Positions 12,383 to 53,160 of a stretch of DNA of 64,000 nt are shown here, in pieces. A model generated the notes under the pieces. It searched no databases, was not told the origin of the DNA, and was given only the letters and a program-made list of their open reading frames with translations. A program made the position numbers and the translations under genes. This DNA comes from Streptomyces montanisoli (lineage in GTDB: Bacteria > Actinomycetota > Actinomycetes > Streptomycetales > Streptomycetaceae): the NCBI RefSeq assembly GCF_017813245.1, contig NZ_JAGIQL010000001.1, forward strand, positions 62,001 through 126,000, read 5' to 3'. Each line of letters starts with the position of its first letter. Positions within the stretch are counted from its first letter, which is position 1.

Positions 12383-12389
12383 TTGGAAG

Positions 12390-12430
12390 AGCGGGTGACG
12401 AGAATCGAACTCGCGCTCTGAGCTTGGGAA
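12390..12430. repeat. att copy: 3' part of tRNA-Gly (41 bp)
   Basis: Identical over 41 bases (AGCGGGTGACGAGAATCGAA ... GAGCTTGGGAA) to 45559-45599 and to 58295-58335, where it is the 3' part of the complete tRNA-Gly gene. Here the rest of the tRNA is missing. It marks an old attachment junction and the probable left end of the 12.4-45.6 kb block. The stretch 12431-12680 holds no supported gene. Confidence 0.88.
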
Positions 12431-12680
12431 TCAAGGTGCGTGGAGCTGCTGATATGGATCTGACCTTCGTGTTTGCCCGACGCGAGAGGTCAGTCGAGGT
12501 CGCGAGAGAGCCGTGTCTGACCGCTGTTGTCCGCCCTGAAGGGCACGGATGGGGCACGCCCTCCGGCGCGCCGAGAAGGTGACTCCAGGGCGGGTCGCGG
12601 TGCTTGGTGGTTCAAGCGCCCGGTATCCGGCGGGCTAGAGCCCATTGCTACGACCGCACGCAGGCCGGTCATGTCGTCGC

Positions 12681-23531: not shown

Positions 23532-24521
23532 CTACGGTCGGCTCGAGTGGTGCAGGATGGCAGCCCTGGCCGCCCATGCCAAGACGCTCTGACTCCGCAT
23601 GGACAGCCCGAGCCGGTTCCAGTGGAAGATCACGTGGTAGCTCAGGACACGCCGCAGCCCGCGGTCGAGTGTTCCTTCGTGTACGGCGTGCCTGAGCGCT
23701 TGGCCCGTGATGCGGAAGGCTGTCGCCCACTCGGCGACCGGCTCCAACGGGCCGCCGGGGCGCAGCAGGGCGCCGTCGTCTGCCAGCAGCAGGGGGTGTA
23801 TCTCACTGGCGCGGGCGTTGAGGTGACCCCTCGGTACGTCGTCGATGGCCGAACGGTGCTCGCCCGTGATGACGCGATGCCAGACGTCTCCCTGCTCGTA
23901 CCACTCCAGTTCGGCGGCGCGCATCGTGATCGTGCAGAGGAGCACGGACAACTCGCGCGGCCTGATCAGCAGATCGGTTCGGTCTCGTAGGCGCTGTGCC
24001 TGCCGGCTGTCGGTGACGAACAGGGCGTGTGCGGCCGTCATGCTGGCCTCGCCTCCGAACGCTGCCGTCTCCGGCTCGTAGATGCCGGGCCACCACCGGT
24101 GCAAGTGCCCGATGGCGACGAGGCGGTCGAAGCCGTCGCCGAGGGAGAGCTCCGCTCCTGTCCCGGATTGCACATGGACCCGCAGGCGCCAGCAGGGGTA
24201 CTTCCTCGTGTACCACCAGCCGTCAATCGTGTGCGCTGTCTCCGCTTCGCGCAGTACCGGCAGGACGTGGGCGAGGAAGACGGCGTCGGCGTTCGACCAG
24301 TCGGTGAAATGCAAGTAGACCTGCCGCCAGTCGGTCGCGGCGGCATTGCGGGACAGCGCCTCTCGGCCCGCCTGGTTGTAGACCGCGACGGCGTCGGACA
24401 GGACTGCCGGGTCCATCCGGTGCTGCTGCGCTGTGTCGGGGAGGGGAAGGCCGGCCATCACGGCGAGGACCGCGCGCTGGACTGGACCGGGGTCGGGTTG
24501 GGTCAGTTGATCAAGAGACAT
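23532..24521 (-). CDS. stand-alone lanthipeptide/thiopeptide-type elimination-domain protein
   Basis: Protein of 329 residues of the 'thiopeptide-type bacteriocin biosynthesis' (SpaB_C) type: DWRQVYLHFTDWSNADAVFL, WWYTRKYPCWRLRVHVQ, RLVAIGHLHRWWPGIYEPET and FVTDSRQAQRLRDRTDL. In class I lanthipeptide enzymes this domain removes glutamate from activated Ser/Thr to give dehydro residues. Here the LanB encoded upstream already seems to have one, so this is a second copy. It overlaps the LanC gene; starts at 24521 or 24530 are possible. It is the last gene of the cluster operon. Confidence 0.85.
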   Translation of the reverse strand: MSLDQLTQPDPGPVQRAVLAVMAGLPLPDTAQQHRMDPAVLSDAVAVYNQAGREALSRNAAATDWRQVYLHFTDWSNADAVFLAHVLPVLREAETAHTIDGWWYTRKYPCWRLRVHVQSGTGAELSLGDGFDRLVAIGHLHRWWPGIYEPETAAFGGEASMTAAHALFVTDSRQAQRLRDRTDLLIRPRELSVLLCTITMRAAELEWYEQGDVWHRVITGEHRSAIDDVPRGHLNARASEIHPLLLADDGALLRPGGPLEPVAEWATAFRITGQALRHAVHEGTLDRGLRRVLSYHVIFHWNRLGLSMRSQSVLAWAARAAILHHSSRP

Positions 24522-25732
24522 GCGTCCCATCCGGTGGTCGGCGCCTGCTGCGAGGCGTAGGTGGCGAGGGCGAGTGCGGTTCCGGCTTCGCCGTTGATCA
24601 GCCCACTCGGGGCGGGGCCACCGGGCCGAGCGTGTCCGGCGAGCGTCTTGCCGAGGCGATTCGGCAGTGCATGAAGTCGGGGGTCGCGAGCGTCGGCTGC
24701 GGCACGGTAAGCGGTCTGGTAGATGCCCGCCCAGCCGTGGCACAGCCCGGCGTCCGTCACGTGCGCGAGCTGTGCGGGGTCGGTCAGGGCCCGGTACAGG
24801 GCGTCCTCGTAGAACGCCTGGAGGTCGGGAGCGCGTAGGGCAATTCCTGCGAGTTGACCGGCTCGCGCGATACCCGTCGTGCCGTAGCACCAGCTCGGGC
24901 GGGCGGGGGCGTCGTGGTGGGGGCGTCCGCCTTCGAGGTCTCGGCGCGAGATGTGCTCGGGCCACCACGGGCCGGAGGGCGCGTACTGACACCAGGCGTC
25001 GAGGTGTTCGCAGACGGCCAGCACGGCTTCCCGATGGCCTTCGACGGTGATGCCACGGCGCAGCGCTTGGGCCAGGAGGAGCAGCGGGCCCGTGATGCCG
25101 TGCGCCGCCCCGAAGTTGGCGTGTCCACCGGGGAACAGGGGCGATTCTCCGCGAGCCGGGTCATGGCGAACCCACCAGCCCGGGAGGCTGTGCCCTCCGG
25201 GAGCGAGCAGGCGGGTCAGGTCGACGAGATACCCGAGGACGCATTCCAGCGCGGCACCCCCAGGATCAGCGCGCAGGAGGTAGGCCCCGATGCCGGTGAG
25301 GCCGTAGAAGAGGTCGTACTCCGCGAACGTGGGCAGGCCGCGGTTGCTGATCCGAGTGCGCGCCGCCTCCACGCGGCGGTGGGCGAGTGCGGTGATGTGC
25401 TGGTGGAGAGTTCTGTGTGCCGGGGCGTACAGGTGCTGATAGGCGGGTGGAACCGTGGCGAGGACGAAGCCGATGGCCGGAGCGCCGAGGAAGAGGCCGG
25501 CGGTGTCGGCTGCACTGACAGAGCCGGCGGCAGCGGCGGTGATCCACCGGTGGGCGGGGTGCCAAGGGCGACCGTACCGGGCGGCCATCTCAATGTGCAG
25601 GAGGCTGATCCCGGCGGCGCCTTCGGCGAGAGACTGCACTGCCCACGGTTCGTCCGGTGGCGGGGCAGGTGGGTCCGCCAGCCGGTCGGTGTACTGCTCC
25701 AGCAGCGACGCGGCCGTGGTCGGCGCGTTCAT
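24503..25732 (-). CDS. lanC: lanthionine synthetase C-like cyclase (LanC)
   Basis: Zinc enzyme of 409 residues that joins cysteine thiols to dehydro residues to form lanthionine rings. The zinc ligands are visible: Cys in RPSWCYGTTGIARAG and Cys-His in GLCHGWAGIYQTAYRA. N-terminal repeats such as LAEGAAGISLLHIEMA and YGLTGIGAYLL fit the alpha/alpha toroid. The ATG at 25732 overlaps the LanB stop by four bases, so both are made together. The length is normal for the family. Confidence 0.93.
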   Translation of the reverse strand: MNAPTTAASLLEQYTDRLADPPAPPPDEPWAVQSLAEGAAGISLLHIEMAARYGRPWHPAHRWITAAAAGSVSAADTAGLFLGAPAIGFVLATVPPAYQHLYAPAHRTLHQHITALAHRRVEAARTRISNRGLPTFAEYDLFYGLTGIGAYLLRADPGGAALECVLGYLVDLTRLLAPGGHSLPGWWVRHDPARGESPLFPGGHANFGAAHGITGPLLLLAQALRRGITVEGHREAVLAVCEHLDAWCQYAPSGPWWPEHISRRDLEGGRPHHDAPARPSWCYGTTGIARAGQLAGIALRAPDLQAFYEDALYRALTDPAQLAHVTDAGLCHGWAGIYQTAYRAAADARDPRLHALPNRLGKTLAGHARPGGPAPSGLINGEAGTALALATYASQQAPTTGWDACLLIN

Positions 25733-28700
25733 CCGCTTGTCCTCCGGTGCTGGAGGGCCGCGTTGCGCACGAGGCGCAGTGTCGTCGCCTCGGCGCTCGG
25801 ACTGACACCGAGAGCCCGGACGTGATGGTGGTGCACCAGGGATCGGGCGACGGTGAGCGGATCGCGCTCGCGGCCCAGGATGATCCGGTAGACGTTCAAC
25901 GCGCTGGCGCGGGCCTGCCATGCTTCGGCAACCTGGGTGCCGCCGGGAAGTTCTACGAGAGCGGAACTCCCGTCAGCCGCGGCGAGTTCGAGCACCTGGT
26001 TGTGCAGGGCTCGGTCGAGCTTTCCGCTGCCCTGCGGAAGGTTGCGCACCAGCCACTCCTCGGCTTCGGCGGCGTCCGACGCGAGCTGTGTGACCAGGTC
26101 CAGTGCACTCGCCGCGGCGATGGCCTGTGGAGAGAAGGCGTCGGCTCGCTCGGCGAGCCGGATCTGCGCGAGGGCGGCGGCGGAGTCCGCCGCGAATACC
26201 TGGTGTGCGGCGTCCATGGCGGCTCCGTGGCCGTAGCGTCCTGTCTGCGGGTGGTAGGCGGCCAGGACGAGCCCCGATGTCAGGCCGACGGTGTGAAGCG
26301 TCTCCGCCCATTTTCGCGCATGGGCGGCCGCGATGCCGTACGCGCCCGGCGGTAGATGCAGTGTGAGGCCGAGGTGCTGATCGGCGTCGGGGCGCGCCAT
26401 TTCCCGATAGCGGGTAAACCACCAGGTTGGCGGGGTGTCGCCGAATACGGCGAGAAGGCGAGGCAGGTGCCGGCTCAGGATCTCGTCGTAGCGTCCCGGA
26501 TGGGCATGGAGCTGGGCGTGGAGGAAGTCCCCGACCTCGGGGGCACCCGGCTCCGTTGCTTCCGGAGTGTGGTGCTGCTGGGGCACCTTGGCGTTCTCGG
26601 GTTCGGGAGCGCCGGCGTGCTCCGGCTGGGCGAGGCCGAGGGAGAGCCATACCTCGTGCGCTCGTCCGATCCAGCCATGGGCGTCGCTGCTGGGGACTTC
26701 GCGCAGCTCCAGGCGGCGAAGGTTGTCCAGGGCGGAGCGCAGCAGGCGGCGGTGGACGGGGTGGGTCGTGTCCAGTGGAAGGCGCTGGTCGTACTCCATC
26801 ATGGCGACGTGTTCCGGTACGCGGAGGCGGTCTCGCCAGGCATCGAAGGCGTGGCCCCACTGTGCCGCTGAGGCCGTCCGGCCGGGTAGGTCTTCGGCGG
26901 TCAGCAGCCAGCGGGCCTGGGCGAGGGCGGTGCGGCGGTAGCGCACACGGGGCAGGAAGGGCAGCCGGGCGGCGGCGCCGAAGTCGAAGGGCTTGTAGGC
27001 GGCGTACCGCGCGGTGGCGACCTCGGCGAGGAAGCGCGCGAGTGGCGGGGTCTGGGTGCCGGCTTCGAGTGCGTGCAGGACTCGTACGTCGATGGGGTCG
27101 CCGGTGGAGTGCCGTACGAGGTGGATGGTGCGCGCGTCGGCGGTGACGGCGATGTCCGCGAGGGGGATCGTCGTCTCGTCGGTGGTGTGGTGGCCGGACA
27201 GCTCGATGACGTGAGGCAGCAGGCGTGAGGTGCGGGTGACGTTCTCGTTGCGGCGCCGGCGCGGAGGGAAGACGAGCTGAGTGCAGAGCGTGCCTGGCGC
27301 TCCGTGGTACGTGGCGGTCAGTGCGTCTTGCTGTGCCGGAGGCAGGATGTGGGCGAATCGGCCGGCCATGCTGCTGCCGGGGCGGGGGACCGAGGTCAGC
27401 AGTACGTCGAAGTCACCGTCGGCGAGCGTCGTGGAGCTGGGTGAGTGGACTTCGAAGGCGACTTCCACCCGCGGCACGAACAGTCGTTCGTCACTACCGG
27501 CAGCCTTTTCCAGTGCGTCGACCATCGCTTCGGTGAGCCGGAGTTCCTCCCGGCCGTCCATGAGGACCTGCTGCACCATGGCGAGGAGCACTTCGTCCCG
27601 GTCGGTGAGCGGCTTCGGCGCGGGGCCGCGTTCGGAGCCGATGTACCCGGCGGGCAGTCCGAGGCCGCTGTCGGCCACCAGGTCCATCACGGGGACTACG
27701 GCGCCAGCTCCGTACCTGGCCCGGAAACGGCGGTGGTAGTCGCGCCAGTGCTGGTAGCCGTAGGGCTGCGGCGTGGTCCGGTAGAGGCGCGATACAGCAG
27801 CTTGCACTTCCGAGACCACGGCCTGCGGAAGCTGCACCTCGGCGTCGAGGGCGGTATCGACGAGCAGAGGTGTCGAGGTGACGGGGGAGAGATCGAGCAT
27901 TCTCGCCGAGACAGCTCTCAGGTCGGCGCCGCAGAGCTCAGGCTGCCACGCGGAGATGTCCTCCCGCACCGCGTTCAGCGCGTGAACCAGGTCACGGACT
28001 TCCGGCACGGTGTCTGCCTGGTGCTTGTCCAGCTCACGACATAGGTGCTGGAAGGCGTCCACGGCGGTCATCGGGGCCCAGAGGCTGGTGAGGAGGAATT
28101 GCTGTTCGATCAGGCTGCTGAGGAGGGCATCGATCTTCTCGTCGGTGGCCTGCGGGAAACCGGCGCGCAGACGGGCATGGAGGTCGCAGTAGGTGATGGG
28201 GCTGCGGGCGGCCTGCATGGCGGTCTCCACCGGGCGGGCGAGACGGACGGATACCTCGGCGGGGGCGAGCAGCTTGGCGTACCCGTCGGCGGGCGGGCCC
28301 GGCGCCACCAGTCGATCACCACGCGTGCGGGCGGCATTGTTGGCGACCAGCGGTAACCGCCTCAGCAACTGGGGGCTGCGCTGGAGGCGCAGGATGATGT
28401 CGGTGATCCATTCCGCGTCGGGCCGGATCGCCACACGGTGTTTGTTTCGCCATCCCACCTCGGGACGGGAGCCGACCGTCAGGGGAGCGGTGCCGGCGAA
28501 CAGGCCGAGCGGCGTGGGACGGTGCTGCCACCGTAGGAGGTACGAGGCGGTGGACAACGCGGTACGGCGGACGTGCCGGGGGTCGCTCCGCCTGCCCTCG
28601 CCCAGGGCCTCGATGGCGGCGGACAAGACCGGGGTGGCAAGTTCCAGCGCGCTGCGAACCTCTGCACGCTGCCAGACGTCGCTCAGCCACCTGCGGGTGA

Positions 28701-28815
28701 CGGTCGCATCGTCCAGGTCGAGGGTGCGGGGTACGTCCACCGGCCCAAGAGCGGTGGTCGCGCGCAGCATCGCGAAGCCCTGCCACCGGTAGTTGGCGAC
28801 TGCTCGGGGAGCCAT
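25729..28815 (-). CDS. lanB: class I lanthipeptide dehydratase (LanB)
   Basis: Protein of 1028 residues. The N-terminal two thirds fit the LanB glutamylation domain: FAMLRATTALGPVDVP, LRWQHRPTPLGLFAGTAPLT, RRTALSTASYLL and QLVFPPRRRRNENVTRTSRL. The last 270 residues (WWFTRYREMARPDADQHLGL ... LVHHHHVRALGVSPSAEATT) fit an elimination (SpaB_C) domain. LanB uses glutamyl-tRNA to dehydrate Ser and Thr of the precursor. The ATG at 28815 follows AAGGAAGGAC; an ATG at 28830 is less likely. A strong hairpin and the precursor gene lie just upstream. Confidence 0.93.
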   Translation of the reverse strand: MAPRAVANYRWQGFAMLRATTALGPVDVPRTLDLDDATVTRRWLSDVWQRAEVRSALELATPVLSAAIEALGEGRRSDPRHVRRTALSTASYLLRWQHRPTPLGLFAGTAPLTVGSRPEVGWRNKHRVAIRPDAEWITDIILRLQRSPQLLRRLPLVANNAARTRGDRLVAPGPPADGYAKLLAPAEVSVRLARPVETAMQAARSPITYCDLHARLRAGFPQATDEKIDALLSSLIEQQFLLTSLWAPMTAVDAFQHLCRELDKHQADTVPEVRDLVHALNAVREDISAWQPELCGADLRAVSARMLDLSPVTSTPLLVDTALDAEVQLPQAVVSEVQAAVSRLYRTTPQPYGYQHWRDYHRRFRARYGAGAVVPVMDLVADSGLGLPAGYIGSERGPAPKPLTDRDEVLLAMVQQVLMDGREELRLTEAMVDALEKAAGSDERLFVPRVEVAFEVHSPSSTTLADGDFDVLLTSVPRPGSSMAGRFAHILPPAQQDALTATYHGAPGTLCTQLVFPPRRRRNENVTRTSRLLPHVIELSGHHTTDETTIPLADIAVTADARTIHLVRHSTGDPIDVRVLHALEAGTQTPPLARFLAEVATARYAAYKPFDFGAAARLPFLPRVRYRRTALAQARWLLTAEDLPGRTASAAQWGHAFDAWRDRLRVPEHVAMMEYDQRLPLDTTHPVHRRLLRSALDNLRRLELREVPSSDAHGWIGRAHEVWLSLGLAQPEHAGAPEPENAKVPQQHHTPEATEPGAPEVGDFLHAQLHAHPGRYDEILSRHLPRLLAVFGDTPPTWWFTRYREMARPDADQHLGLTLHLPPGAYGIAAAHARKWAETLHTVGLTSGLVLAAYHPQTGRYGHGAAMDAAHQVFAADSAAALAQIRLAERADAFSPQAIAAASALDLVTQLASDAAEAEEWLVRNLPQGSGKLDRALHNQVLELAAADGSSALVELPGGTQVAEAWQARASALNVYRIILGRERDPLTVARSLVHHHHVRALGVSPSAEATTLRLVRNAALQHRRTSG

Positions 28816-28855
28816 GTGTCCTTCCTTCATGCAACGCGCGGGAGGAGGGGAGGGG

Positions 28856-28895
28856 GCCGGTGGGCCGGGCGCGGCGCCACGCCCGGCCCACCGGC
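28856..28895 (-). terminator. intracluster hairpin between precursor and lanB
   Basis: Arms of 16 bases (28856-28871 and 28880-28895) pair perfectly around an 8-base loop, between the precursor stop and the lanB start. Such a partial terminator would let the precursor be made in excess over the enzymes. Confidence 0.72.
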
Positions 28896-28911
28896 AACGG
28901 AGTGGCCTGGC

Positions 28912-29103
28912 TCAGGCCGGGTCCTCCACGAAGGAGTTGCAGGCGGAGGAGCCCGTCGCGCACGTGGAGCCGCAGCCGTCGCCGGTGCTGCACATGAGCT
29001 TCCCGTACGCGTGCTCGGCGATGACGATCTTCACGTCCAGGGGTGCGAAGTCGTCGTCGAGGTCCGCCAGCGGGGCGGGCGGGGCCAGCGTGGTGCTCGT
29101 CAT
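28912..29103 (-). CDS. lanA: FxLD-family lanthipeptide precursor
   Basis: Peptide of 63 residues. The leader contains ADLDDDFAPLDVKIVIAEHA, a form of the FxLD motif with one extra residue (F-A-P-L-D). The core is about MCSTGDGCGSTCATGSSACN plus SFVEDPA, with four cysteines and six Ser/Thr before the tail, matching FxLD lanthipeptides (DGCGSTC is characteristic). Several rings can form. The Asp-Gly in STGDGCG is the likely target of the cluster's isoaspartate-type methyltransferase. The ATG follows GAAGGAAGGG. It is followed by a hairpin and then lanB, lanC and the elimination-domain gene. Confidence 0.9.
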   Translation of the reverse strand: MTSTTLAPPAPLADLDDDFAPLDVKIVIAEHAYGKLMCSTGDGCGSTCATGSSACNSFVEDPA

Positions 29104-29155
29104 GGTGGTGCCCTTCCTTCTGTTTCGGTGATGTGGAACCGCCTGGCTCCCGGCG

Positions 29156-30392
29156 TTACGCCGAGGGCCAGGAGAGCGAGATCCGGCTGTGCACCTTGTC
29201 GATGACCCGTTGAGTCGAGATCTGGTCGTCGGAGGTGCCGGCCGGATATACCCGGATGACTGGGCCGGGCCCGCCGCGCCTGTTGGCTTCCCAGTCGCGC
29301 AGCACGTCCGCGACCTTGTCGGCGAAGGGCTGCGCATGCGGTCCGAGGGCATGGACGCCGTATTCGACGTGCTTGTTGTCCTCGGTGCGTCGGGTGACGA
29401 GGTAGGCGAAGGTGTCGTCCTCGACGGCGGCGAGGGTGAACCGCTTGTTCGCCGGGGTGACGAGGCCCGTGTCCAGGTCCTCGTCGACGGTCATCGTGCA
29501 GAATCCCGGCAGGCTGATCGCCATGGTCATCTGGAGGGTGTCGAGCAGTTCGGAAAGGCCGACGGTGACCCCGGTCCACAGCTCGTGGCGCGGCGTCGTG
29601 ACGGCGTTGTCCAGCCGGTTCGGGTCCGCGGGCAGGCCGTCGTCGAACCGCAGCCCGATCTCTGGCGTGCCGTTGACCAGCAGGATTTCTTCTCGGTGAA
29701 CGGTCGAACCCTGCATGGGGACGAAGCCGCAGATACGCGCCGACTCACTCTCCAGGTGCCGGCCGTGCTCCCCCCGTGGCCTGGGTGAAGGCGACCGAGC
29801 GGGTCAGGCCCCGCATCCGCAGTGGTACAACGAGCCGGCCGCCCTGCTTGAGGTGCGACGTCCAGGAGGGGGAGATGTCCCAGGCCCCCGCGGTCACCAT
29901 GACGACATCGACCTCGCCGAGGTCCGGGACGGGCTCGGCCGCGTCGGCGGTGACCACACGGACGTCTTCGTAGCCGTGCTGATCCAGGAGCCGACGAGCG
30001 CGTTCGGTGACAGCAGGGTCGATGTCGATGGTCACGACCTCACCGTCCTCGCCGACGAGTTCGGCGAGATAGGCCGCGTTCAGCCCGCCCGAGCCGACCT
30101 CCAGCACGCGCATACCGGGACGCATCTGGGCCTGCTCCAGCATCATGGCCTGGACCTGCGGGGCCGAGACGGAACTGAGCTGCACGCCGTGCTCATCCGT
30201 CTTGGTGATCACGGCGGCGTACGTGTCGTACGCCTTCTCCAGGGACGTGCCAGGTGCGAACTCGTGGCGAGGCACGTTGCGCATCGCCGCTTCGATCTCG
30301 GGAGAAGAGACGGTGCCATCGGCGCACAGCTCGTCCACCACTTGGTTGCGCAGGCGGGTCGCCTCGTCTGGATCGACGATCTTGTTGGTCAT
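29156..30392 (-). pseudogene. FxLD-system methyltransferase, frameshifted
   Basis: The N-terminal frame (ATG at 30392 after AAGGAATC) encodes a PCMT-like methyltransferase: RNVPRHEFAPGTSLEKAYD, SAPQVQAMMLEQAQMRPGM, RVLEVGSGGLNAAYLAEL (SAM site) and GAWDISPSWTSHLKQGGRLV. After VAFTQATGG it runs into a stop, while the next frame continues the family sequence (HLESESARICGFVPMQGSTV) to 29156. One extra G in the G6 run (29770-29775) explains this; without it the protein is about 411 residues. In this family it should methylate an aspartate of the precursor. It is either a broken gene, a sequence error or a slippage site. Confidence 0.85.
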
Positions 30393-30418: not shown

Positions 30419-30841
30419 TCACGCGACGCTTCTGACGGTCCGCGTCTCAGCCAGTCGTTCGAGAAGGGCGTTGGTGAGGCCGGCCATACGCCTCAAGTAG
30501 CCGAGGGCCCGGCGACTGTCATCGGGCATTACCGCTGCGCGCAATATGAGACCGCGTTGGACGAGGGCCGCCACCTGTGCGTCGCTCTCCTCTACCGCCA
30601 CCGCGATGTCTACCAGGACGGTCAGGCCCCCGCGGAGACGCTCGGCCAGGTCCCCGAACTCGGCCTCGAGCGGCGCCTGATCGCCGAGAACGTCTCCGAC
30701 GTCGTCGAGGATCGTCTCCAGAGACCGTGTGCTGCGCAGTCGTCTGGCGACTCGGGCGAGACCATCCGCGTCCAGGGGTGGCGACCACGGCGCGATAGGC
30801 CGGGGCCGCGAACCACGCTCCGTCAAGGCCAGTGGGTACAT
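30419..30841 (-). CDS. hypothetical helical protein (DUF6415-like)
   Basis: Protein of 140 residues, mostly helical (RVARRLRSTRSLETILDDVG, RLRGGLTVLVDIAVAVEES, RALGYLRRMAGLTNALLERL). It resembles the small Streptomyces family often found beside HATPase-type regulators, which I recall as DUF6415; its function is unknown. I chose the ATG at 30841 because it overlaps the stop of the ATPase gene (TGATG), so the two are coupled. It lies between that gene and the lanthipeptide methyltransferase gene on the same strand. Confidence 0.72.
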   Translation of the reverse strand: MYPLALTERGSRPRPIAPWSPPLDADGLARVARRLRSTRSLETILDDVGDVLGDQAPLEAEFGDLAERLRGGLTVLVDIAVAVEESDAQVAALVQRGLILRAAVMPDDSRRALGYLRRMAGLTNALLERLAETRTVRSVA

Positions 30842-31362
30842 CAGCGGCTCCCGGTGGTGAAGAGGCACCAGGTGGTTGCCCCGCCGTCACTGACGCCCCA
30901 GCGCGTGGCGAGCGCGGCGACCAGGAAGAGCCCTCGACCCGAGACGTCGTCTTCGGCCGGGCAACGCAGTTCAGCAAGCATCGCCGGATTGCCGTCCGCG
31001 ACCTCGACGATCAACTCGTCGGTGGTGCACCACACCTTCAGGCTCACCTGACCGCAGCCGTAGGAGACGGCATTGGTGACGAGTTCCGAGACGGCGAGCA
31101 CGATGTCCTCGGCCAACTGGTCGGATACGTGCCACTGCCGCAGGTGAGCGCCGGTGAGGCGTCTCGCCCGGCTGACGTGGGCTTCCTCCGCCGCGAACGC
31201 CGCATCGAAGCCACGGACGTGCGTGGGCCGGGAGACGAAGTCCGATGCGGTGCCTGTTTCAGCCGCCGGCACCTCCGGCCCGCACCTCCGATCCCGCGAC
31301 TGTCTGCTGGGCGTGCGGACGAAGGCGGAGACGTGATCTGCCACGGTTCCCACACTCCCCAT
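30841..31362 (-). CDS. HATPase-type regulatory protein
   Basis: Protein of 173 residues with an RsbW-like ATPase fold at residues 60-165: DIVLAVSELVTNAVSYGCGQ (N-box), VEVADGNPAMLA and SGRGLFLVAALATRWGV. Residues 1-55 are poorly conserved and the true start may be downstream. It is divergent from an XRE/TPR regulator gene (31515) and coupled to the DUF6415-like gene; such pairs are common next to RiPP clusters in Streptomyces, so a role in cluster control is plausible. Confidence 0.82.
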   Translation of the reverse strand: MGSVGTVADHVSAFVRTPSRQSRDRRCGPEVPAAETGTASDFVSRPTHVRGFDAAFAAEEAHVSRARRLTGAHLRQWHVSDQLAEDIVLAVSELVTNAVSYGCGQVSLKVWCTTDELIVEVADGNPAMLAELRCPAEDDVSGRGLFLVAALATRWGVSDGGATTWCLFTTGSR

Positions 31363-31514: not shown

Positions 31515-33038
31515 ATGAACTCACCGAGTACGGCGGGTGCTGCCATGAAGATGCCCAACCGCGCTTGCACCAAGTGCGGGAGCGCGCTGAGCCAGTACAA
31601 CCCTGGCTCCCTGTGCGCGTCGTGCTCGCGCTCTGACGCGGCACCGAACGTGCCAGACAGGGCGTGGCGGGATCCTCTGGTCCAACGTGCCTTGGCCGAG
31701 TGGGACTTCGGGACGCTTCTTCGGCTGTTGCGTCGTCGATCGGGCTTGTCTCAGATGCAGATGCGCGCCCTGACAGGCTTCACCCAATCGCACATTTCCG
31801 GCCTGGAGAACGGGCGGAAGCAGTTGGGTGGCCGAGACGCCATCATCGATCTGCTCACCGGTCTGGGTGTTCCGGCAGATCTCCGGCCGCTCCTCCTGAC
31901 ACCGCTCGCCGGCCGCCCGCAGACGGTGGTCACAGAGGCTCTGGACCCGGCGATGCCGTGGACGGCGGATCGTATGGTGACCTCACTTGAAGTTGCTGTC
32001 GGAGGTCCCGTGAAGCGTCGCAGCGTGCTGGCCGCCCTGAGCGGTTCCGTGCTCACCCAATACATACTGCAGTCGGCCGTCGCGCCCACGGAGGCGTTGG
32101 CCGCCGAGACACGCGACGGAACACGAGTGACCGTCCCACTTCTCGAATCCCTGCAGAGCACCACCAACGCGCTGAGAGAGATGGACGCCGCGAGCGGCAG
32201 CGGCTCCCTGGCCGGTACCGCCAAGCAGCAGCTACGCGTCCTGCTCGGGCTGATGAAGACAGGCACGTACAACGATCGCACCGGTCGCCGTCTCGCCGCG
32301 GTTACCGCCGATACCGCCATGCAGGCCGGTTGGTACGCGCTCGACGGCGGCAACCACGATGCCGCGCAGCGGCTGCTCCTGGGCGCGCTTCGCGCCGCAC
32401 ACGCGTCGGGGGACTCGCGGCTCCGCGCCGGTGCACTGTCGTTCCTGGCCATTCACGGCTACTCCGTCGGTGACCCCCGCGACGCGGTGACCGCGGCGAG
32501 AACCGCACGGCAGGCGATCTCCGACAAGGACGCGCCGGCCCTGCACGCCATGCTTCTGACACGGCAAGCGCGCGGCCACGCCCGATTGCGAGAAGAGCGG
32601 CACGCGCTCGCGGCCCTCCAGGAAGCCGAGGCGCTGTGTGCCCGTGGCGCAGGCGAAGACGATCCGCACTGGCTGTACTGGATCAACCCGGGCGAGATCC
32701 TCGGCCAACGTGGCAGCGCCTACCTGGAGATGGGGAAGCTGGCCGAGGCCGCCTCCACCTTCGCCCAGGCCCGAGGCGTGCTGAGCCAGGACGAAGTCCG
32801 CACCAGAGCACAGTTCCTCTCGCGCGCCGCCACAGCCCAGATGCGTGCCGGGGACGCCGACGCCGGCTGTGCGATCGGGGAAGAGGTCCTGACGATGGTG
32901 AACGGAGTCCACTCCGCCCGGCTGAACGAGCACCTTCACTCCATGCTCCACGAGGCCCGCCAGTTCGGCGACACGGTCGCCACGCGGTCCTTCATCGAAC
33001 ACGGCGAAGGTCTTCTGCGAGAGCGGGCGGTGGCATGA
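31515..33038 (+). CDS. XRE-family regulator with TPR-like repeats
   Basis: Protein of 507 residues. The N-terminus carries a zinc-ribbon-like CTKCG ... CASC, followed by an XRE helix-turn-helix (RRRSGLSQMQMRALTGFTQS, then HISGLENGRKQLG; about residues 75-115) and about 380 residues of helical TPR-like repeats (RARGVLSQDEVRTRAQFLSR). Such proteins often sense small peptides or signalling molecules. A second ATG at 31545 is a possible start. It overlaps the HAD gene by four bases. It is divergent from the HATPase gene near the lanthipeptide cluster. Confidence 0.85.
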   Translation: MNSPSTAGAAMKMPNRACTKCGSALSQYNPGSLCASCSRSDAAPNVPDRAWRDPLVQRALAEWDFGTLLRLLRRRSGLSQMQMRALTGFTQSHISGLENGRKQLGGRDAIIDLLTGLGVPADLRPLLLTPLAGRPQTVVTEALDPAMPWTADRMVTSLEVAVGGPVKRRSVLAALSGSVLTQYILQSAVAPTEALAAETRDGTRVTVPLLESLQSTTNALREMDAASGSGSLAGTAKQQLRVLLGLMKTGTYNDRTGRRLAAVTADTAMQAGWYALDGGNHDAAQRLLLGALRAAHASGDSRLRAGALSFLAIHGYSVGDPRDAVTAARTARQAISDKDAPALHAMLLTRQARGHARLREERHALAALQEAEALCARGAGEDDPHWLYWINPGEILGQRGSAYLEMGKLAEAASTFAQARGVLSQDEVRTRAQFLSRAATAQMRAGDADAGCAIGEEVLTMVNGVHSARLNEHLHSMLHEARQFGDTVATRSFIEHGEGLLRERAVA

Positions 33039-33772: not shown

Positions 33773-35482
33773 TCACCTGTGGCGCACGGGATGTTCCGCA
33801 TGGCTATGCGGTGGGGCAGCCGATGCGGGCGGACGCGGAGATGGCGCGGACGGTATCCGGCGCGTGCTGCGTGCCTGCGCGGCGATGGCTCGCGCACTGG
33901 GTGGCGTGTGATGCGCCTGGCGGCGGACCCGCCAGGTGAGGGTCTGGGCCGGAGATCGGGCGTCGTCCAGGCTGCGGGCGGAAACGGCCCGCTTCAGGAG
34001 AACCAAGGGCTGGTGTCCTGCGGCCTCCGCCTGCGCGAGGGATGCGGCCAGAGCAGGCCAGGCGGGATCGTCGAGGATTCGTTCTGCCAGCTCGGGCACC
34101 GCCGCGCGGAGGTGCTGGGCGTGGCGTTTGACGGCGGGCATGGGCGGCCTCTGCCGGCTCAGAGCTGCCAGTGGCGCGGCAGCCGCTTGCTGGGAGGCTG
34201 CTTGCAGGTGGACAAGGGCCTGTTGGGCGGCGGCGACCTGCTGGTCGTGCTGGTGGAGTCGGTGCCAGCGCGCGGTGGCGATGGCGACGAGGACGGTGAC
34301 GTCGAGGAACATCGCCAGCCCGTCGCCGGAGGCGGGGCTGGTGCGCAGGGCGCGGATCGCTCCACGCAGCGCGCGAGCCTGGTCGTGTTCTGCGCGGATG
34401 CGGGAACGGGTGGCCCGTTCGAACGTGGCAGCGGCCTGCTGGAGTGCCGGTCGGAACTCGACGGATACGAGGAGGGGAAGGGCGTCGAGTGCCTCGCCGA
34501 GGGCCGCGATGTGCGCTTGGGCGATGGCGCCGTCGCCTCGTTCCAGGTGATGGGGGATGCGCTCGGCCGCGGCGGTGGCCTGGTGCCAGGGGTCGGCCCT
34601 GCGGTGGGCGCGGGGTTCGGCGCTGGGCTGCGCCTCGACGGTGGAGAGGCGTTCGCGGATCTCGGGGAAAGACAGGTCGGGGGCGAGTGTGGAGCCGGAG
34701 AACCAGACGGGTTCGCCCGAGGCGTTGGTGTCACCTTCGACGGCTACCTTGTAGCCGCGTACGTCGCCGGAGGGGAAACGCTGGATGTCGACCACCACGC
34801 CCTCGACATTGTCGAGGAGACGGAGGAATTCCTCCGGACTCGCGGAGACGGACACCACGGTGCGGATCGTGGCACGCAGCCGTGCGCGGGGAGTGCCGGT
34901 GCGGCCGGTGCGTTGGGCCTTCTCTTGCTCCGCGCGTGTGGGGCGCCGGGCCGCGGTGCGATCGCCGCGCCTTACCTCCTGGAGGCCGTACTCCTTCTCC
35001 ACCGCTGCGAGCTCCTTGTCGGCGGTGAGGTAGTCGTTCCAGTGGCGGGCCGGCCGAAGGTCTCCTCGGACCTTGGTGGCAGCGATGTGGATGTGGTCGT
35101 CGGCGTGCCGGACGGCGATCCAGCGGCAGCCGTCCGGGTCGTCCGCCGGCGCGATCCCGGTGGCCGCGACCACACGGCGGGCGATGGCCGCCCAGTCGTC
35201 ATCGGTGAGTACACGGTCTCCGGGTGCGCCGCGGAGCGAGCAGTGCCACACGTGCTGCTTCGGTGCACGGCCGAGGCGCTGGGCTTGCTTGACGCGCAGG
35301 TCGAGGTCGGCCACGAGGAGCGTCCTGCTGGCTGCGGTGTCGTCGGTGCGGCCGGGGTCGGGTGCGAATCCGTCCCAGGAGGCGACGAGGTGTGGGTCGG
35401 TGTGCTCGTTGGCGCGGCCGGGGCCGAAGAGGTAGCGGACGAGGCCGGCGGTGCTCTTGCCGCTGCTGATCTTGGCGATCAC
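33773..35482 (-). CDS. relaxase/mobilisation protein
   Basis: Protein of 569 residues. The N-terminal relaxase domain starts MIAKISSGKSTAGLVRYLFG and holds KQHVWHCSLRG and the histidine motif RHADDHIHIAATKV. These enzymes nick at an origin of transfer and lead the DNA strand into a recipient. Residues 230-569 are helical and Ala/Arg-rich. The start overlaps the stop of the MobC-like gene by four bases. With its neighbours it forms a mobilisation module; no FtsK or type IV secretion gene lies beside it, so it may use the transfer protein of another element. Confidence 0.88.
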   Translation of the reverse strand: MIAKISSGKSTAGLVRYLFGPGRANEHTDPHLVASWDGFAPDPGRTDDTAASRTLLVADLDLRVKQAQRLGRAPKQHVWHCSLRGAPGDRVLTDDDWAAIARRVVAATGIAPADDPDGCRWIAVRHADDHIHIAATKVRGDLRPARHWNDYLTADKELAAVEKEYGLQEVRRGDRTAARRPTRAEQEKAQRTGRTGTPRARLRATIRTVVSVSASPEEFLRLLDNVEGVVVDIQRFPSGDVRGYKVAVEGDTNASGEPVWFSGSTLAPDLSFPEIRERLSTVEAQPSAEPRAHRRADPWHQATAAAERIPHHLERGDGAIAQAHIAALGEALDALPLLVSVEFRPALQQAAATFERATRSRIRAEHDQARALRGAIRALRTSPASGDGLAMFLDVTVLVAIATARWHRLHQHDQQVAAAQQALVHLQAASQQAAAAPLAALSRQRPPMPAVKRHAQHLRAAVPELAERILDDPAWPALAASLAQAEAAGHQPLVLLKRAVSARSLDDARSPAQTLTWRVRRQAHHTPPSARAIAAQARSTRRIPSAPSPRPPASAAPPHSHAEHPVRHR

Positions 35483-36126
35483 TGCGGGCCCTTTGTGGCG
35501 GCGGCCTGGTTTGTGGCCACCGCGATGTGGCGGACGGTGCTACCGACCGCGCCGAGGGAGCGCTCGGCCTGGGCGAGGAGCGCGGTGTCCCCAGGGTGTG
35601 GATAGTCGCCGGAGTTGAGTTTCTTGGCCATCTGGTTGATGTTGTGGCCGATCTTGGCGACCTCGCTGCGCAGGGCTGTGAGTTCGTCGATGTAGTCGTC
35701 GAGCTGGGTGCGCTGGCCGCGCAGGGCGAGGCCGCCGTGCAGGTGGGTCATGACGACGGCGCCGACGTAGTGGGCGGCGGCGATGTTGAGCGAGCGGGCC
35801 ATGGCGAGGATGACGGCTTTCTCGTCACTGCTGTAGCGGACGTCGACGCGCTCTTTGCGCTGGGTCTCTTTGCGCCGGCGGCGTCGGGCGACGCGGTGCA
35901 GCGCGGCGGCTTCGGCGGCACGCGGCGGCAGAACGCTGGCGGCGTCGGCGGGCTGGTCCTGCTCGGGCGCCCCCCGGTGCCCGACGTCCTCCGCCACCCC
36001 CGGGGCGGAGGGCATCGCGTTGGACCGGCCCTTGGACGGTCCAACGCCATACCTTGCTCCGCCTGGTTCCGGGGTGCAGGTGATCTGCTTCTGTGCGGCT
36101 TGGGGTTCGTGTTCGACGTGGTGCAA
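35479..36126 (-). CDS. MobC-like mobilisation accessory protein
   Basis: Up to 215 residues. The C-terminal half fits the MobC pattern: VDVRYSSDEKAVILAMARSL, then YIDELTALRSEVAKIGHNIN and QMAKKLNSGD, an RHH-like domain plus coiled coil that guides the relaxase to the transfer origin. The N-terminal 75 residues are disordered and the start may be at the ATG encoding MPSAPGVAEDVG. Its stop overlaps the relaxase start. A transfer origin could lie upstream, but I cannot identify one. Confidence 0.78.
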   Translation of the reverse strand: MHHVEHEPQAAQKQITCTPEPGGARYGVGPSKGRSNAMPSAPGVAEDVGHRGAPEQDQPADAASVLPPRAAEAAALHRVARRRRRKETQRKERVDVRYSSDEKAVILAMARSLNIAAAHYVGAVVMTHLHGGLALRGQRTQLDDYIDELTALRSEVAKIGHNINQMAKKLNSGDYPHPGDTALLAQAERSLGAVGSTVRHIAVATNQAAATKGPQ

Positions 36127-39373: not shown

Positions 39374-39592
39374 GTGACCACAACCGACACCCTCCTCACC
39401 GTGGAGCAAGCCGCCGAACGCCTCGGTACCGGCGTCCGCTTCATCCGCCGACTCATCCAGGAACGCCGAATCCGCTACGTCAAGCTCGGCAAGCCCGTAC
39501 GGATACCCGAGAGCGCCCTCGCCGAGTACGTCGCAGAACGCACCGTTCCGACGCTCCGCGAAGCGCGTTCGAGCTTCCGGAAGGTCGCCTGA
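39374..39592 (+). CDS. xis: excisionase (Xis-like)
   Basis: Protein of 72 residues with the helix-turn-helix of excisionases: LTVEQAAERLGTGVRFIRRL and IRYVKLGKPVRIPESALAEY. The GTG at 39374 has AGGGGGAG just upstream; a longer frame has no family signal. Its stop overlaps the integrase start (TGATG). It is similar to the excisionase at 56859, so both elements share this module. Confidence 0.85.
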   Translation: MTTTDTLLTVEQAAERLGTGVRFIRRLIQERRIRYVKLGKPVRIPESALAEYVAERTVPTLREARSSFRKVA

Positions 39593-40740
39593 TGGCGGGC
39601 CGCAGGCCGCAGAGGCGGCGGGAATTCGGCACCGTCCGACAGCTCCCCTCAGGACGGTGGCAGGCACGCTACTGGGCACCGGACGGCAACCGCCGCAAAG
39701 CACCGGAGACCTTCCCGACGCGCACCGACGCCCAGACCTGGCTCACGCTCACCCAGGCCGACATCGAGCGCAATCACTGGGTGGACCCCGACGCGGGCAA
39801 GGTGAACTTCGCCGCGTACGCGGTCCGGTGGATCGAGGAGCGCGGGCTCTCGGCCACCACGGAGGAGCTGTACCGCAGGCTCCTGCGGTTGCACCTGCTG
39901 CCCACGTTCGCCTCGGTGAACCTGGACGACATCACCCCGCCTGTCGTGCGCACCTGGCGGGCCGAGCGGCTGGAGGCAACCGGCGCGACGACCGTCGCCA
40001 AGGCGTACCGCCTCCTCAAGGCCATCATGGAGACGGCCGCCGACGACGAGCTGATCCGCCGCAACCCGTGCCGGATCAGGGGCGCCGGCAGCGAAAAGGC
40101 AGGGGAACGCCCGACGGCCACCGTGGAACAGGTCGACGCGCTCGCGGAAGCCATGGGACCGAGGTGGCGGTTGATGGTGTACTTCGGCGCCTACGGGCCG
40201 ATGCGCCCGGAGGAGCAGGCGGCTCTGCGCCGTCCTGATGTCACGCTCGACCCCCTCGCGGTCAAGATCCGCGAGGCCGCTCCCGAGCTGGCCACCGGAC
40301 GCAGGGTCGAAGGCGACACAAAGTCGATGGCGGGCAGGCGCACTGTCTTCCTCCCGGCCTTCCTGCATGTAGAGGTCGAGCGGCACCTGAAATGGTTCGC
40401 CGAGAAGGAGCCCGACGGGCTCATCTTCGTCGGCGAGAAGGGCGCGCCGTTCCGACGGTCCACGTTCGGCCGCAAGTGGCGCAGGGCACGGGCGAAGGCC
40501 GGCCTGCCGGAGGGCTTCCGCTTCTACGACCTCCGCCACACCGGCCACACCCTGTCCACCCAGTCGGGCGCCACGCTCAAGGACACGATGGTGCGCGCCG
40601 GTCAGTCCTCGGAGAAGGCGGCGCTGATCTACCAGCACTCCGACGGGGAGCGGCAGCGTGAGGTAGCCGGAGGGATTGATTCCCGCGTCCGGGCCGTCCG
40701 CCAGAGGGCGCTCGACCAGTCGACGACGCGCGAAATCTGA
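39592..40740 (+). CDS. int: tyrosine site-specific integrase
   Basis: Tyrosine recombinase of 382 residues with an N-terminal arm-binding part, a SAM-like core-binding domain (about 60-150) and a catalytic domain. Catalytic residues are visible in GPMRPEEQ (Arg), DLRHTGHT (Arg-His) and ALIYQHSD (Tyr). It is clearly a relative of the integrase at 57071 over its full length, so it probably also uses the tRNA-Gly site. Unlike that gene, it is not next to an att copy: the nearest lies 4.8 kb to the right. The extra genes between may have been inserted later. Confidence 0.93.
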   Translation: MAGRRPQRRREFGTVRQLPSGRWQARYWAPDGNRRKAPETFPTRTDAQTWLTLTQADIERNHWVDPDAGKVNFAAYAVRWIEERGLSATTEELYRRLLRLHLLPTFASVNLDDITPPVVRTWRAERLEATGATTVAKAYRLLKAIMETAADDELIRRNPCRIRGAGSEKAGERPTATVEQVDALAEAMGPRWRLMVYFGAYGPMRPEEQAALRRPDVTLDPLAVKIREAAPELATGRRVEGDTKSMAGRRTVFLPAFLHVEVERHLKWFAEKEPDGLIFVGEKGAPFRRSTFGRKWRRARAKAGLPEGFRFYDLRHTGHTLSTQSGATLKDTMVRAGQSSEKAALIYQHSDGERQREVAGGIDSRVRAVRQRALDQSTTREI

Positions 40741-45504: not shown

Positions 45505-45599
45505 GAGAGGTCTAGACAACAAACAGCCCCGGGCCGTTGGCCTGGGGCTTTTCCTTGGAGCGGGTGACGAGAATCGAACTCGCGCTCTGAGCTTGGGAA
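45505..45599. repeat. middle att copy with integrase flank and terminator
   Basis: GAGAGGTCTAGACAAC (45505), a terminator hairpin (45525-45549) and the 41-base tRNA part (45559-45599) repeat, with a few changes, the block 58240-58335. It is the junction between two tandem elements: right end of the 12.4-45.6 kb block and left end of the 45.6-58.3 kb element. The tRNA itself is not complete here. Confidence 0.85.
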
Positions 45600-45746
45600 T
45601 CGCGGGCTGAAGCGCCGCTATTGATGCCCTGACCTGCACAGATGCCTGCGCGGTCGCCTCGCGCGAGCGGGGCAAATGCCCTGCTCGTGTCCGTGGCTCA
45701 CCGTACGTTCTGGTGCGCGTCTGGTGCGGCGGGTACGGTCGATTGC

Positions 45747-46673
45747 ATGACCTCGGAGGCGGCCGGCGGGCCGGTTGGACGACAGGAGTTCACGGCGGGG
45801 ACGGCTGGCGCGTCGTTGCGTGAGGCGTGCGCGGCCGCCGGCGTCGACGCCTCTGGCGCAGAGCTGCTGCGGCTGGGGTCGAACGCCGTGTACCGGCTCC
45901 CGTCCGCTCCGGTTATCGTCCGCATCGCCCGTGACGTGGACGCGGCCGAGGACATGCAACGGGCGGTCGCGGTGGCGCGCTGGTTGGCGTCGCAGGACTT
46001 CCCGGCGACTCGGATACTGCCTCGCATCGAGCAGCCGCTGACTGCGGCTGGCCGGGTGGTGACGTTCTGGGAGAGCGCGCAGGAGCGCGAGGAATACGCG
46101 ACGGTCGCGGAGCTGGCCGACCTGCTCAAGCGCCTGCACTGGCTGGACGAGCCGGAGACGCTGCACCTGTCGTACTTCGATCCCGTCGGCAAGCTGTGGT
46201 CATCGCTGCGCGCCATGCGCGGGGTGGCGCCCGAAGACGCGGCGTTCCTGGAGCAGCGGGTCGTACGCCTGGCCAAGGAGTACGAGCGGCTGGACTTCGT
46301 GCTCCCGTTCGGGATGATCCACGGTGACGCCAACGTGGGCAACGTGCTGCGCCACCGCGACGGGCAAGCCATCCTCATCGACCTCGACGGCTTCACTCTC
46401 GCGCCGCGGGAGTGGGACCTGATCCTGACCGCGATCTACTACGACCGCTTCGGCTGGCACACGCGCACGGAGTATGAGGGATTCGTCCACCACTACGGCT
46501 TCGACGTTATGAACTGGCCCGGGTACTCGGTCCTGGCTGACGTCCGTGAGTTGATGATGGTTCTCTGGATGGGCCAGCAGGTTGCCGACAGCGCCAAGTC
46601 AGCGGCGGAGTTCGGGCGACGGGTGGAGACGTTGCGCACGGATGGAAGCCGCAAGGAGTGGAGTCCCTTCTGA
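45747..46673 (+). CDS. aminoglycoside-phosphotransferase-fold kinase-like protein
   Basis: Protein of 308 residues. Kinase-like features: the nucleotide-lobe strand VYRLPSAPVIVRIARDVD, the catalytic loop MIHGDANVGNVL (H-G-D-x-x-x-x-N) and the metal motif ILIDLDGF. The substrate is not known; APH-fold proteins phosphorylate antibiotics, sugars or other small molecules. The ATG at 45747 has no clear ribosome binding site, so the message may be leaderless. It is the first gene inside the left end of the conjugative element and converges with an XRE regulator gene. Confidence 0.85.
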   Translation: MTSEAAGGPVGRQEFTAGTAGASLREACAAAGVDASGAELLRLGSNAVYRLPSAPVIVRIARDVDAAEDMQRAVAVARWLASQDFPATRILPRIEQPLTAAGRVVTFWESAQEREEYATVAELADLLKRLHWLDEPETLHLSYFDPVGKLWSSLRAMRGVAPEDAAFLEQRVVRLAKEYERLDFVLPFGMIHGDANVGNVLRHRDGQAILIDLDGFTLAPREWDLILTAIYYDRFGWHTRTEYEGFVHHYGFDVMNWPGYSVLADVRELMMVLWMGQQVADSAKSAAEFGRRVETLRTDGSRKEWSPF

Positions 46674-46683
46674 GGGCGTTGCC

Positions 46684-48063: not shown

Positions 48064-48210
48064 GCGTCTGTACCTCCCCGAGGGTCCGCATACGAGGCCC
48101 GTTTCTGCGCTGCTCACCAACTCTACGTAACCGGACGGACACTTGAACACCCTGTTTGGCGCTCACAAGCGGGCCAGGGCCGATGACGGGTGCTGACGCG
48201 CGCCTCGCCA

Positions 48211-48240
48211 CCTCGTCATCCCTCGTCACCTCTCGTCATC
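48211..48240. promoter_or_regulatory. three tandem 10-bp repeats upstream of primase-like gene
   Basis: CCTCGTCATC, CCTCGTCACC and TCTCGTCATC lie head to tail with exact 10-base spacing, between the divergent XRE gene and the gene at 48317. One helical turn per unit suggests a binding array for a regulator on one face of the DNA. The rest of the intergenic region shows no gene. Confidence 0.5.
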
Positions 48241-48316
48241 TCCCCAGCTCAGGGCCGAGACAGGAGTCTGTTCGTACGGCGGCCGAACCGGGCCGATAGA
48301 GAAGCGTCCGACCGAG

Positions 48317-49169: not shown

Positions 49170-49187
49170 TCGACAGGGAGAACCAAG

Positions 49188-51307: not shown

Positions 51308-51362
51308 GGCGAGAATCTCCTTGTGGGTCATTTGGCGTTTGTTTTTCGATCCACTTTGTGGC

Positions 51363-51974: not shown

Positions 51975-52225
51975 GTAGTGAGGCTATCGACCTGCGCCGG
52001 GTAGTACCTGTCATATGTCGGAAGTTGACCGCAGACCGTCGCAGCCGCGACGTAGTCCTTTCCGGACGACAGGCGACCGACTGCCGTGAGCGCGGTACGG
52101 ACTCCAGCTGGGCTGGAGCGGGGCGGAGACAGGAGCGCAGGTCCGGCCGGGAGTCGGGTCACGCGCGGGGAGCGGAGCGAGCCGCCTTGAAGACGTAGAG
52201 AAAGTTTGAGCCACGCAACCCGACG

Positions 52226-53104: not shown

Positions 53105-53160
53105 GGATGCCTTCCCGTAGTGAAGCTCTACGGGCCGATGGATCAAAGGAGTTGTAAGCA

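What the first reader, a model, noticed from the sequence alone, without database searches (positions are those of the whole stretch)
23532..30392. FxLD-type lanthipeptide cluster without visible transporter or protease
Precursor, LanB, LanC, a stand-alone elimination-domain protein and a PCMT-like methyltransferase gene lie in one direction. No exporter, leader protease or immunity gene is seen nearby. The core has an Asp-Gly inside the ring-forming region, a likely site for isoaspartate formation. The leader motif has one residue more than the usual F-x-L-D.
Basis: partly seen in the sequence, partly recalled or inferred. Interest (0 to 1): 0.65.

Follow-up and report, generated by a model that had tools for sequence, protein, structure and literature searches.

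The report
Phage-defence-type lanthipeptide cluster on mobile element
A Streptomyces-type bacterium carries, on a piece of mobile DNA, a known kind of gene set for a small ring-shaped peptide; related sets are reported to protect bacteria against viruses from inside the cell, which would explain why no export or leader-cutting genes are present.

Summary
The cluster is real and correctly named, but mostly ordinary. Precursor, LanB, LanC, stand-alone elimination protein and PCMT-like methyltransferase match the known families. The missing exporter, protease and immunity genes are normal here: 31 related loci share a 6.85-kb cassette and no transporter or leader protease as a common neighbour. 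FAPLD occurs in 25 of 27 precursors extracted from those loci. IsoAsp formation at TxDGC is published chemistry.

(1) The methyltransferase is broken by a frameshift near 29,775, absent from 38 of 38 aligned relatives. (2) The cassette is cargo of a relaxase-bearing integrative element at tRNA-Gly(CCC), in tandem with a pSAM2-type element. (3) The genome holds a second FxLD cluster beside a conservon, the type that secondary sources call lanthiphage: anti-phage lanthipeptides acting inside the cell. At least 6 of 31 relatives lie beside anti-phage genes.

Best reading: a mobile FxLD/PAMT lanthipeptide system, probably an intracellular anti-phage peptide, with a damaged tailoring enzyme in this assembly. 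New member of a known kind.

The parts
28912..29103 (-). lanA, FxLD precursor peptide, 63 aa, leader motif FAPLD, core with TGDGC
   Evidence: TIGR04363 at 56.2 bits, cut-off 30
25729..28815 (-). lanB, full-length dehydratase with its own C-terminal elimination domain
   Evidence: PF04738 E 1.7e-206 and PF14028 E 1.5e-27
24503..25732 (-). lanC, cyclase
   Evidence: PF05147 E 1.7e-34
23532..24530 (-). stand-alone elimination-domain protein (thiopeptide-type); start set at MGRMS as in relatives
   Evidence: TIGR03891 E 4.1e-58, PF14028 E 3.5e-23; start from the sequence and relatives' starts
29745..30392 (-). PAMT methyltransferase, catalytic half (positions 1-196 of 394), frame lost at its end
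   Evidence: TIGR04364 E 9.7e-101, PF01135 E 6.2e-35
29156..29716 (-). PAMT C-terminal half in another frame (ORF from its first ATG; family match 195-394 begins slightly upstream)
   Evidence: TIGR04364 E 1.5e-65; frame break near 29775 absent in 38 of 38 aligned relatives
30419..30868 (-). DUF6415 protein upstream, same direction; possible regulator, not part of the shared cassette DNA
   Evidence: PF19979 E 5.4e-10; homologue within 6 kb in 14 of 31 loci
30841..31362 (-). HATPase_c_2 anti-sigma-like protein upstream
   Evidence: PF13581 E 3.1e-18; homologue within 6 kb in 19 of 31 loci
31515..33038 (+). helix-turn-helix regulator, divergent
   Evidence: PF13560 E 3e-14
33773..35482 (-). MobA/VirD2-like relaxase of element B
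   Evidence: PF03432 E 3.5e-8
35479..36126 (-). MobC mobilisation protein of element B
   Evidence: PF05713 E 6.1e-7
39592..40740 (+). tyrosine integrase of element B
   Evidence: PF00589 E 2.5e-8; its homologue lies next to tRNA-Gly(CCC) in NRRL F-5126
12389..12432 (+). att repeat, distal end of element B
   Evidence: 44-bp repeat of the tRNA-Gly 3' end, 0 expected in shuffles
45558..45601 (+). att repeat between element B and element A
58292..58365 (-). tRNA-Gly(CCC), integration site; holds the third att copy (58294-58337, one mismatch)
45558..58337 (.). element A: pSAM2-type AICE (Prim-Pol, GntR, FtsK, RepSA, integrase) in tandem with element B

Best explanation
An FxLD-family class I lanthipeptide cassette carried by an integrative, relaxase-bearing element at tRNA-Gly(CCC). 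LanB dehydrates Ser/Thr of the core, LanC closes thioether rings, the extra elimination protein has an undefined role, and a PAMT (OlvSA-type) methylates the Asp of TGDGC to give aspartimide and isoAsp. In this assembly the PAMT frame is broken, so the last step is doubtful. The product most likely stays inside the cell and acts against phages, as reported for lanthiphages, which explains the lack of exporter, leader protease and immunity genes. Shown here: gene identities, frame break, mobile element, homology to conservon-adjacent FxLD clusters. Inferred: rings, isoAsp, intracellular action, anti-phage function. Identity and mobile context are near certain; the confidence is for the functional part.
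For: Family models. Shared 6.85-kb cassette without exporter or leader protease in 31 loci. Element with integrase, MobC and relaxase between att repeats, and a related element on the same tRNA in NRRL F-5126. Six of 31 relatives lie within 6 kb of PprPIWI, JetC3, LmuB or DrmD genes. FxLD precursors lie about 5 kb from a conservon gene in 6 of 9 chosen genomes, and in 4 of the 6 loci fetched they have the published lengths of the lanthiphage_Sco precursors, 59 and 43 aa (lengths from PMC3091789), with homologous LanB, LanC, elimination and PAMT parts. Anti-phage, intracellular action and no obvious antibiotic activity are described in PMC12360287 section 14.
Against: The primary lanthiphage paper was not held, so whether FAPLD cassettes belong to its family is unknown. 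Identity to the conservon-type enzymes is only 33-43%. No defence gene was recognised by Pfam in the window's own element, though PADLOC was not run on it. JetC3-like genes occur in 100 of 101 Streptomyces genomes, mobile islands gather defence genes anyway, and the loci are not independent. PMC3091789 calls SCO6931 and SCO6932 97% identical, unlike the precursor pairs. A Frankia cluster of the wider group does have an ABC transporter gene.
Confidence: 0.57

Rival explanations
1. A classical secreted lantibiotic whose leader is cut and whose product is exported by general host proteases and transporters encoded elsewhere.
For: Class I machinery with a Cys- and Ser/Thr-rich core. The mature form of this product family is described as unknown (PMC7268733 passage). 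A single shared host exporter would also leave no gene nearby; no search for one was made.
Against: No immunity gene was recognised either, and the cassette moves between hosts without these genes. The related conservon-adjacent type is reported to act inside the cell and without obvious antibiotic activity.
Confidence: 0.22
2. A decaying or inactive copy: the methyltransferase break is real and the cluster is on its way out in this strain.
For: Frame break in the methyltransferase, unique among 39 aligned sequences. The strain has another FxLD cluster with an unbroken fused PAMT.
Against: The other four genes are open and full length. The assembly has 401 contigs, so a single frame break at a G run may be a sequencing error. 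This rival does not contradict the family-level reading.
Confidence: 0.13
3. A signalling peptide or a control device of the mobile element rather than an effector.
For: Regulators of HATPase, DUF6415 and helix-turn-helix type lie beside the cassette, and 18 of 26 precursors share one 27-residue core.
Against: No exporter or receptor pair is conserved around the cassette. Core pN/pS is only moderately low, 0.31. Similar regulators are common in Streptomyces (recalled).
Confidence: 0.05

Closest known systems
FxLD family lanthipeptides with OlvSA/PAMT methyltransferase (lanthimiditides; OlvA of Streptomyces olivaceus NRRL B-3009)
   Same: TIGR04363 precursor, TIGR04364 methyltransferase, LanB, LanC, TxDGC core motif (PMC10787088 and PMC13001092 passages)
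   Different: Leader motif FAPLD; PAMT frame broken in this assembly. OlvA itself was not compared.
Lanthiphages, anti-phage lanthipeptides (lanthiphage_Sco of S. coelicolor, beside cvn8)
   Same: LanBC-type class I, Actinomycetota; homologous LanB, LanC, elimination and PAMT parts in conservon-adjacent clusters taken to be of the Sco type; defence genes beside at least 6 of 31 relatives
   Different: 33-43% identity to those enzymes; stand-alone rather than fused elimination and PAMT genes; on a mobile element with no recognised defence neighbour in the window; activity untested
pSAM2-type AICEs and mobilizable integrative elements at tRNA genes
   Same: tRNA-Gly(CCC) site, 44-bp att repeats, tyrosine integrase, MobC and relaxase
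   Different: RepSA and FtsK were recognised only in the neighbouring element A; 9 ORFs within element B were not scanned

Membership tests
FxLD family lanthipeptide cluster | precursor over the TIGR04363 cut-off | tested here: met
   56.2 bits against 30
FxLD family lanthipeptide cluster | methyltransferase of TIGR04364 in one open frame | tested here: not met
   Both halves match but lie in different frames; absent break in 38 of 38 aligned relatives; a sequencing error is possible. Filed as a member of the family because precursor, LanB and LanC are met and the first half alone exceeds the cut-off (337.7 against 320 bits)
FxLD family lanthipeptide cluster | LanB and LanC | tested here: met
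   PF04738, PF14028, PF05147
PAMT lanthipeptide (lanthimiditide) | TxDGC core motif | tested here: met
   TGDGC in the core
PAMT lanthipeptide (lanthimiditide) | Asp converted to aspartimide or isoAsp | not testable with these tools
   needs mass spectrometry or NMR
Lanthiphage | LanBC-type class I cluster in Actinomycetota | tested here: met
   292 or more genus members searched as the same genus, and the named nearest relatives are Streptomyces
Lanthiphage | lies in a defence island | tested here: inconclusive
   Window: none recognised by Pfam, PADLOC not run on it. Relatives: at least 6 of 31 loci
Lanthiphage | same clade as the published anti-phage precursors | tested here: inconclusive
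   Conservon-adjacent clusters with 59- and 43-aa FxLD precursors are homologous, but the primary paper and S. coelicolor itself were not read
Lanthiphage | protects against phages, acts inside the cell | not testable with these tools
   needs expression and phage challenge
Integrative mobilizable element | att repeats at a tRNA, integrase and relaxase | tested here: met
   supported by the related element in NRRL F-5126
Integrative mobilizable element | excision and transfer | not testable with these tools
   needs PCR across the att repeats and mating; no empty site was found

The most novel reading that the evidence does not exclude
The whole FxLD/PAMT lanthipeptide family, whose mature product is described as unknown, is the lanthiphage family or its near kin: a plug-in intracellular anti-phage module that travels as cargo of integrative elements, with the aspartimide/isoAsp residue as part of its active chemistry. 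The held 2026 aspartimide review has no word beginning with 'phage', and a search for lanthipeptide, aspartimide and anti-phage listed no paper with all three terms (15 of 28 listed); the primary lanthiphage paper could not be read.
Probability: 0.3. Interest if true: 0.6.

Novelty: new member of a known kind. Interest (0 to 1): 0.34.

Why it matters
It removes the puzzle of the missing exporter and protease: the cassette lacks them in its relatives too, and the reported intracellular anti-phage role of related clusters would account for it. It joins two bodies of work that the held papers treat apart, PAMT/isoAsp lanthipeptides and lanthiphages, and makes a direct test possible: is the isoAsp-forming methyltransferase needed for phage protection? 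If real, the broken methyltransferase of this strain is a natural test case. It also shows this gene set as cargo of a tRNA-targeted mobile element.

Tried and rejected
Exporter or leader protease near the cluster: not found. Pfam scans covered 30 window ORFs outside the cluster (one search lists 62 ORFs, and 9 of those inside element B were not scanned) and 194 representatives of 301 flank genes from 31 loci. print only 25 of 101 and 25 of 122 families, so a gene present in one locus could be hidden. ABC_tran matched 2 of the 97 representatives; Hydrolase_4, described as serine aminopeptidase S33, matched 2 there; neither is a common neighbour. In the window an SBF symporter (13492-14610) and a ZT_dimer fragment (23124-23480) were seen and not taken for peptide exporters.

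Empty integration site: not found; the left flank is poorly conserved in the 61 genomes searched. The element was delimited by att repeats and by NRRL F-5126.

Special selection on the core: not claimed; pN/pS 0.31 in the core, 0.51 in the 18 residues from the motif on.

Defence neighbours: mad3 hits cover a small part of the proteins and were not counted, nor were partial OLD, AriAB, HamB and REase_III hits (L040, L026, L029, L024). Of the 20 flank proteins scanned singly, 8 gave no PADLOC family at 1e-20: L019 and L034, and L030, L020, L014 (18464-20644), L037, L032 and L036 (4309-6315). JetC3-like genes occur in 100 of 101 Streptomyces genomes, so their mere presence says nothing; PprPIWI occurs in 15 of 101. 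No control set of flanks was scanned.

Rows lost: precursors of L017, L033 (stretch cut by contig ends), L023 and L025 (not matched by my pattern) are missing from the 27 of 31. The pattern required a TGD.C-like motif, so that motif's presence in its rows is not independent evidence. One search's 52 precursors include the window twice and apparent repeats of the same species. In one search, 38 of 40 relatives could be aligned.
Full report
WHAT IS THERE. Five gene functions on the minus strand fill 23532-30392. The precursor (28912-29103, 63 aa) scores 56.2 bits against TIGR04363, FxLD family lanthipeptide, cut-off 30. LanB (25729-28815) has the N-terminal domain and a C-terminal elimination domain; LanC (24503-25732) and a further stand-alone elimination protein (23532-24530) follow. 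Upstream of the precursor lie two halves of TIGR04364, 'methyltransferase, FxLD system'.

THE METHYLTRANSFERASE IS BROKEN. The ORF 29745-30392 matches TIGR04364 positions 1-196 and ends in unrelated residues; positions 195-394 are found in another frame downstream, where the ORF list gives 29156-29716 from its first ATG. The shift lies at a G run near 29775 and is absent in 38 of 38 relatives that could be aligned there, of 40 tried. In the genus search with the C-terminal half, the next 15 best hits lie in open frames of 356-605 aa and the window's in one of 215 aa. The assembly has 401 contigs, so a sequencing error is possible.

FAMILY AND MISSING GENES. A LanB query found 31 loci: 27 Streptomyces, 2 Actinacidiphila, 2 Actinomadura. 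In 27 of the 31, DNA similarity to the window runs from about 23.55 to about 30.4 kb at 70-92% identity; L017 and L033 are cut by contig ends, and L037 and L038 align in pieces. NRRL F-5126 alone continues without a gap to 40667; L040 has one more stretch (31571-33699) and six others (L015, L018, L021, L023, L039 and none further) have short matches at 35-38 kb (the short-match loci number five). The shared unit is thus a cassette of about 6.85 kb without exporter, protease or immunity gene. Among 194 groups made from 301 genes within 6 kb of the cassette, 2 matched ABC_tran, and no subtilisin-type or C39 leader protease is among the families printed (the tables are cut at 25 families). For the second FxLD cluster of the same genome, 10 ORFs in and around it were scanned and none is an ABC transporter or protease. 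A 2010 survey says that actinobacterial clusters typically encode LanA, B, C and a methyltransferase, with an ABC transporter gene noted in one Frankia cluster (PMC3091789, passages).

MOTIF AND ISOASP. FAPLD occurs in 25 of 27 precursors extracted from the 31 loci; the two Actinomadura ones have FDLD, and the same genome's second precursor has FGLD. The Asp-Gly lies in TGDGC, an instance of the TxDGC motif of PAMT lanthipeptides (PMC10787088, passages). For OlvSA of S. olivaceus, methylation after LanB and LanC, aspartimide and 70-80% isoAsp are described (PMC13001092, passages).

MOBILE ELEMENT. A 44-bp repeat, the 3' part of tRNA-Gly(CCC), occurs at 12389, 45558 and, with one mismatch, in the tRNA at 58294; shuffles give none. 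Between the second and third copies lies a pSAM2-type element with RepSA, FtsK, GntR and integrase genes. Between the first and second lies a 33.2-kb element with integrase, MobC, relaxase and the cassette. In NRRL F-5126 a related 31.2-kb element sits directly at tRNA-Gly(CCC) between two repeats; outside it the chromosome matches window 2-6574 and 58240-61135 plus 63298-63999, and inside it matches window 23551-40667; the distal part differs. So the cassette is cargo, and the window's strain has a second element at the same tRNA. Within 6 kb of the cassette, 9 of 31 loci have a relaxase group: MobA-like in 4, and a 1,486-aa TraA/TrwC-like group in 5. The second name is inferred, which does not tell which member matched TrwC.

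DEFENCE NEIGHBOURHOOD. All 194 representatives were scanned in bulk against PADLOC and 20 flank proteins singly. Matches over most of a model: PprPIWI and PprDinG in L021 (L023 by similarity), JetC3 in L039, LmuB in L036 and L041, DrmD in L014: 6 of 31 loci, a lower bound. Base rates: PprPIWI in 15 of 101 Streptomyces genomes, JetC3-like genes in 100 of 101. The loci are not independent, no control set was scanned, and mobile islands gather defence genes anyway; this supports a defence role without proving it.

LINK TO LANTHIPHAGES. Secondary sources describe lanthiphages as LanBC-type class I clusters of Actinomycetota in defence islands (PMC12715929, passages). PMC12360287 section 14 reports protection of Streptomyces, inhibited late phage transcription, escape mutants in phage GNAT genes, activity of intracellular peptides only so far, and no obvious antibiotic activity. 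Lanthiphage_Sco is the S. coelicolor cluster beside cvn8 (PMC13343842, passages; PMC8510531, passages), with precursors SCO6931 and SCO6932 (PMC12175524, passages) of 59 and 43 aa (PMC3091789, passages). The primary paper was not held. TIGR04363 hit 114 of 392 Streptomyces genomes. I chose 9 of these, 7 for neighbouring precursor hits and 2 by guess from genome size; in 6 of the 9 a conservon gene (DUF742) lies about 5 kb from the precursors. In 4 of the 6 loci fetched (L087-L090) the two precursors are 59 and 43 aa; L085 gave one precursor by my pattern, and L086 has one FGLD precursor. In five of the six (all but L086) LanB, LanC, elimination and PAMT N-half are 36-43% identical to the window's parts and the PAMT C-half 33-35%; in L086 the values are 33, 35, 39 and 25% for LanB, elimination, PAMT N and C, with no LanC hit among the ORFs called. 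One misfit: PMC3091789 calls SCO6931 and SCO6932 97% identical, which the pairs seen here are not; S. coelicolor itself was not read. The window's own genome has such a conservon locus on contig C112 (precursor at 109495, DUF742 at 114806), collinear with L086 over 12 kb at 86%. So the strain holds a conservon-adjacent FxLD locus and an element-borne FAPLD cassette.

VERDICT. A mobile FAPLD-type member of the FxLD/PAMT lanthipeptide family, most likely an intracellular anti-phage peptide system, with a damaged methyltransferase in this assembly. The absent exporter and protease are expected for the kind. New member of a known kind.

Noticed in passing
45558-58337: A pSAM2-type AICE (Prim-Pol, GntR, FtsK, RepSA, integrase) lies in tandem with the lanthipeptide element on the same tRNA-Gly(CCC); an APH-type phosphotransferase gene (45642-46673) sits at its left end.
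   Followed up: partly
L043 (G000 contig C112, 96000-115000): Second FxLD cluster in the same genome, with an elimination-PAMT fusion and FGLD precursor, about 5 kb from a conservon gene.
   Followed up: yes
L018-L024, L026, L027, L031, L039: In 11 of 31 loci a group that looks like a GNAT acetyltransferase (named by eye), mostly next to a TPR-type helix-turn-helix gene, lies within 6 kb of the cassette. Lanthiphage escape mutants map to phage GNAT genes, so an immunity or partner role is worth a test.
   Followed up: no
L023, about 9667-9915: The precursor of this locus reads in a shifted frame upstream of the core.
   Followed up: no
tRNA-Gly(CCC) region in G009, G019, G029: Several Streptomyces genomes show further att-like copies of the tRNA end near this tRNA, suggesting a common integration hotspot.
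   Followed up: no
50001-52000: G+C drops to 0.533 in this 2-kb bin inside element A, against about 0.67-0.73 elsewhere.
   Followed up: no
41885-44101: A 738-aa ORF in element B, between the integrase and the att repeat, has no Pfam match.
   Followed up: no
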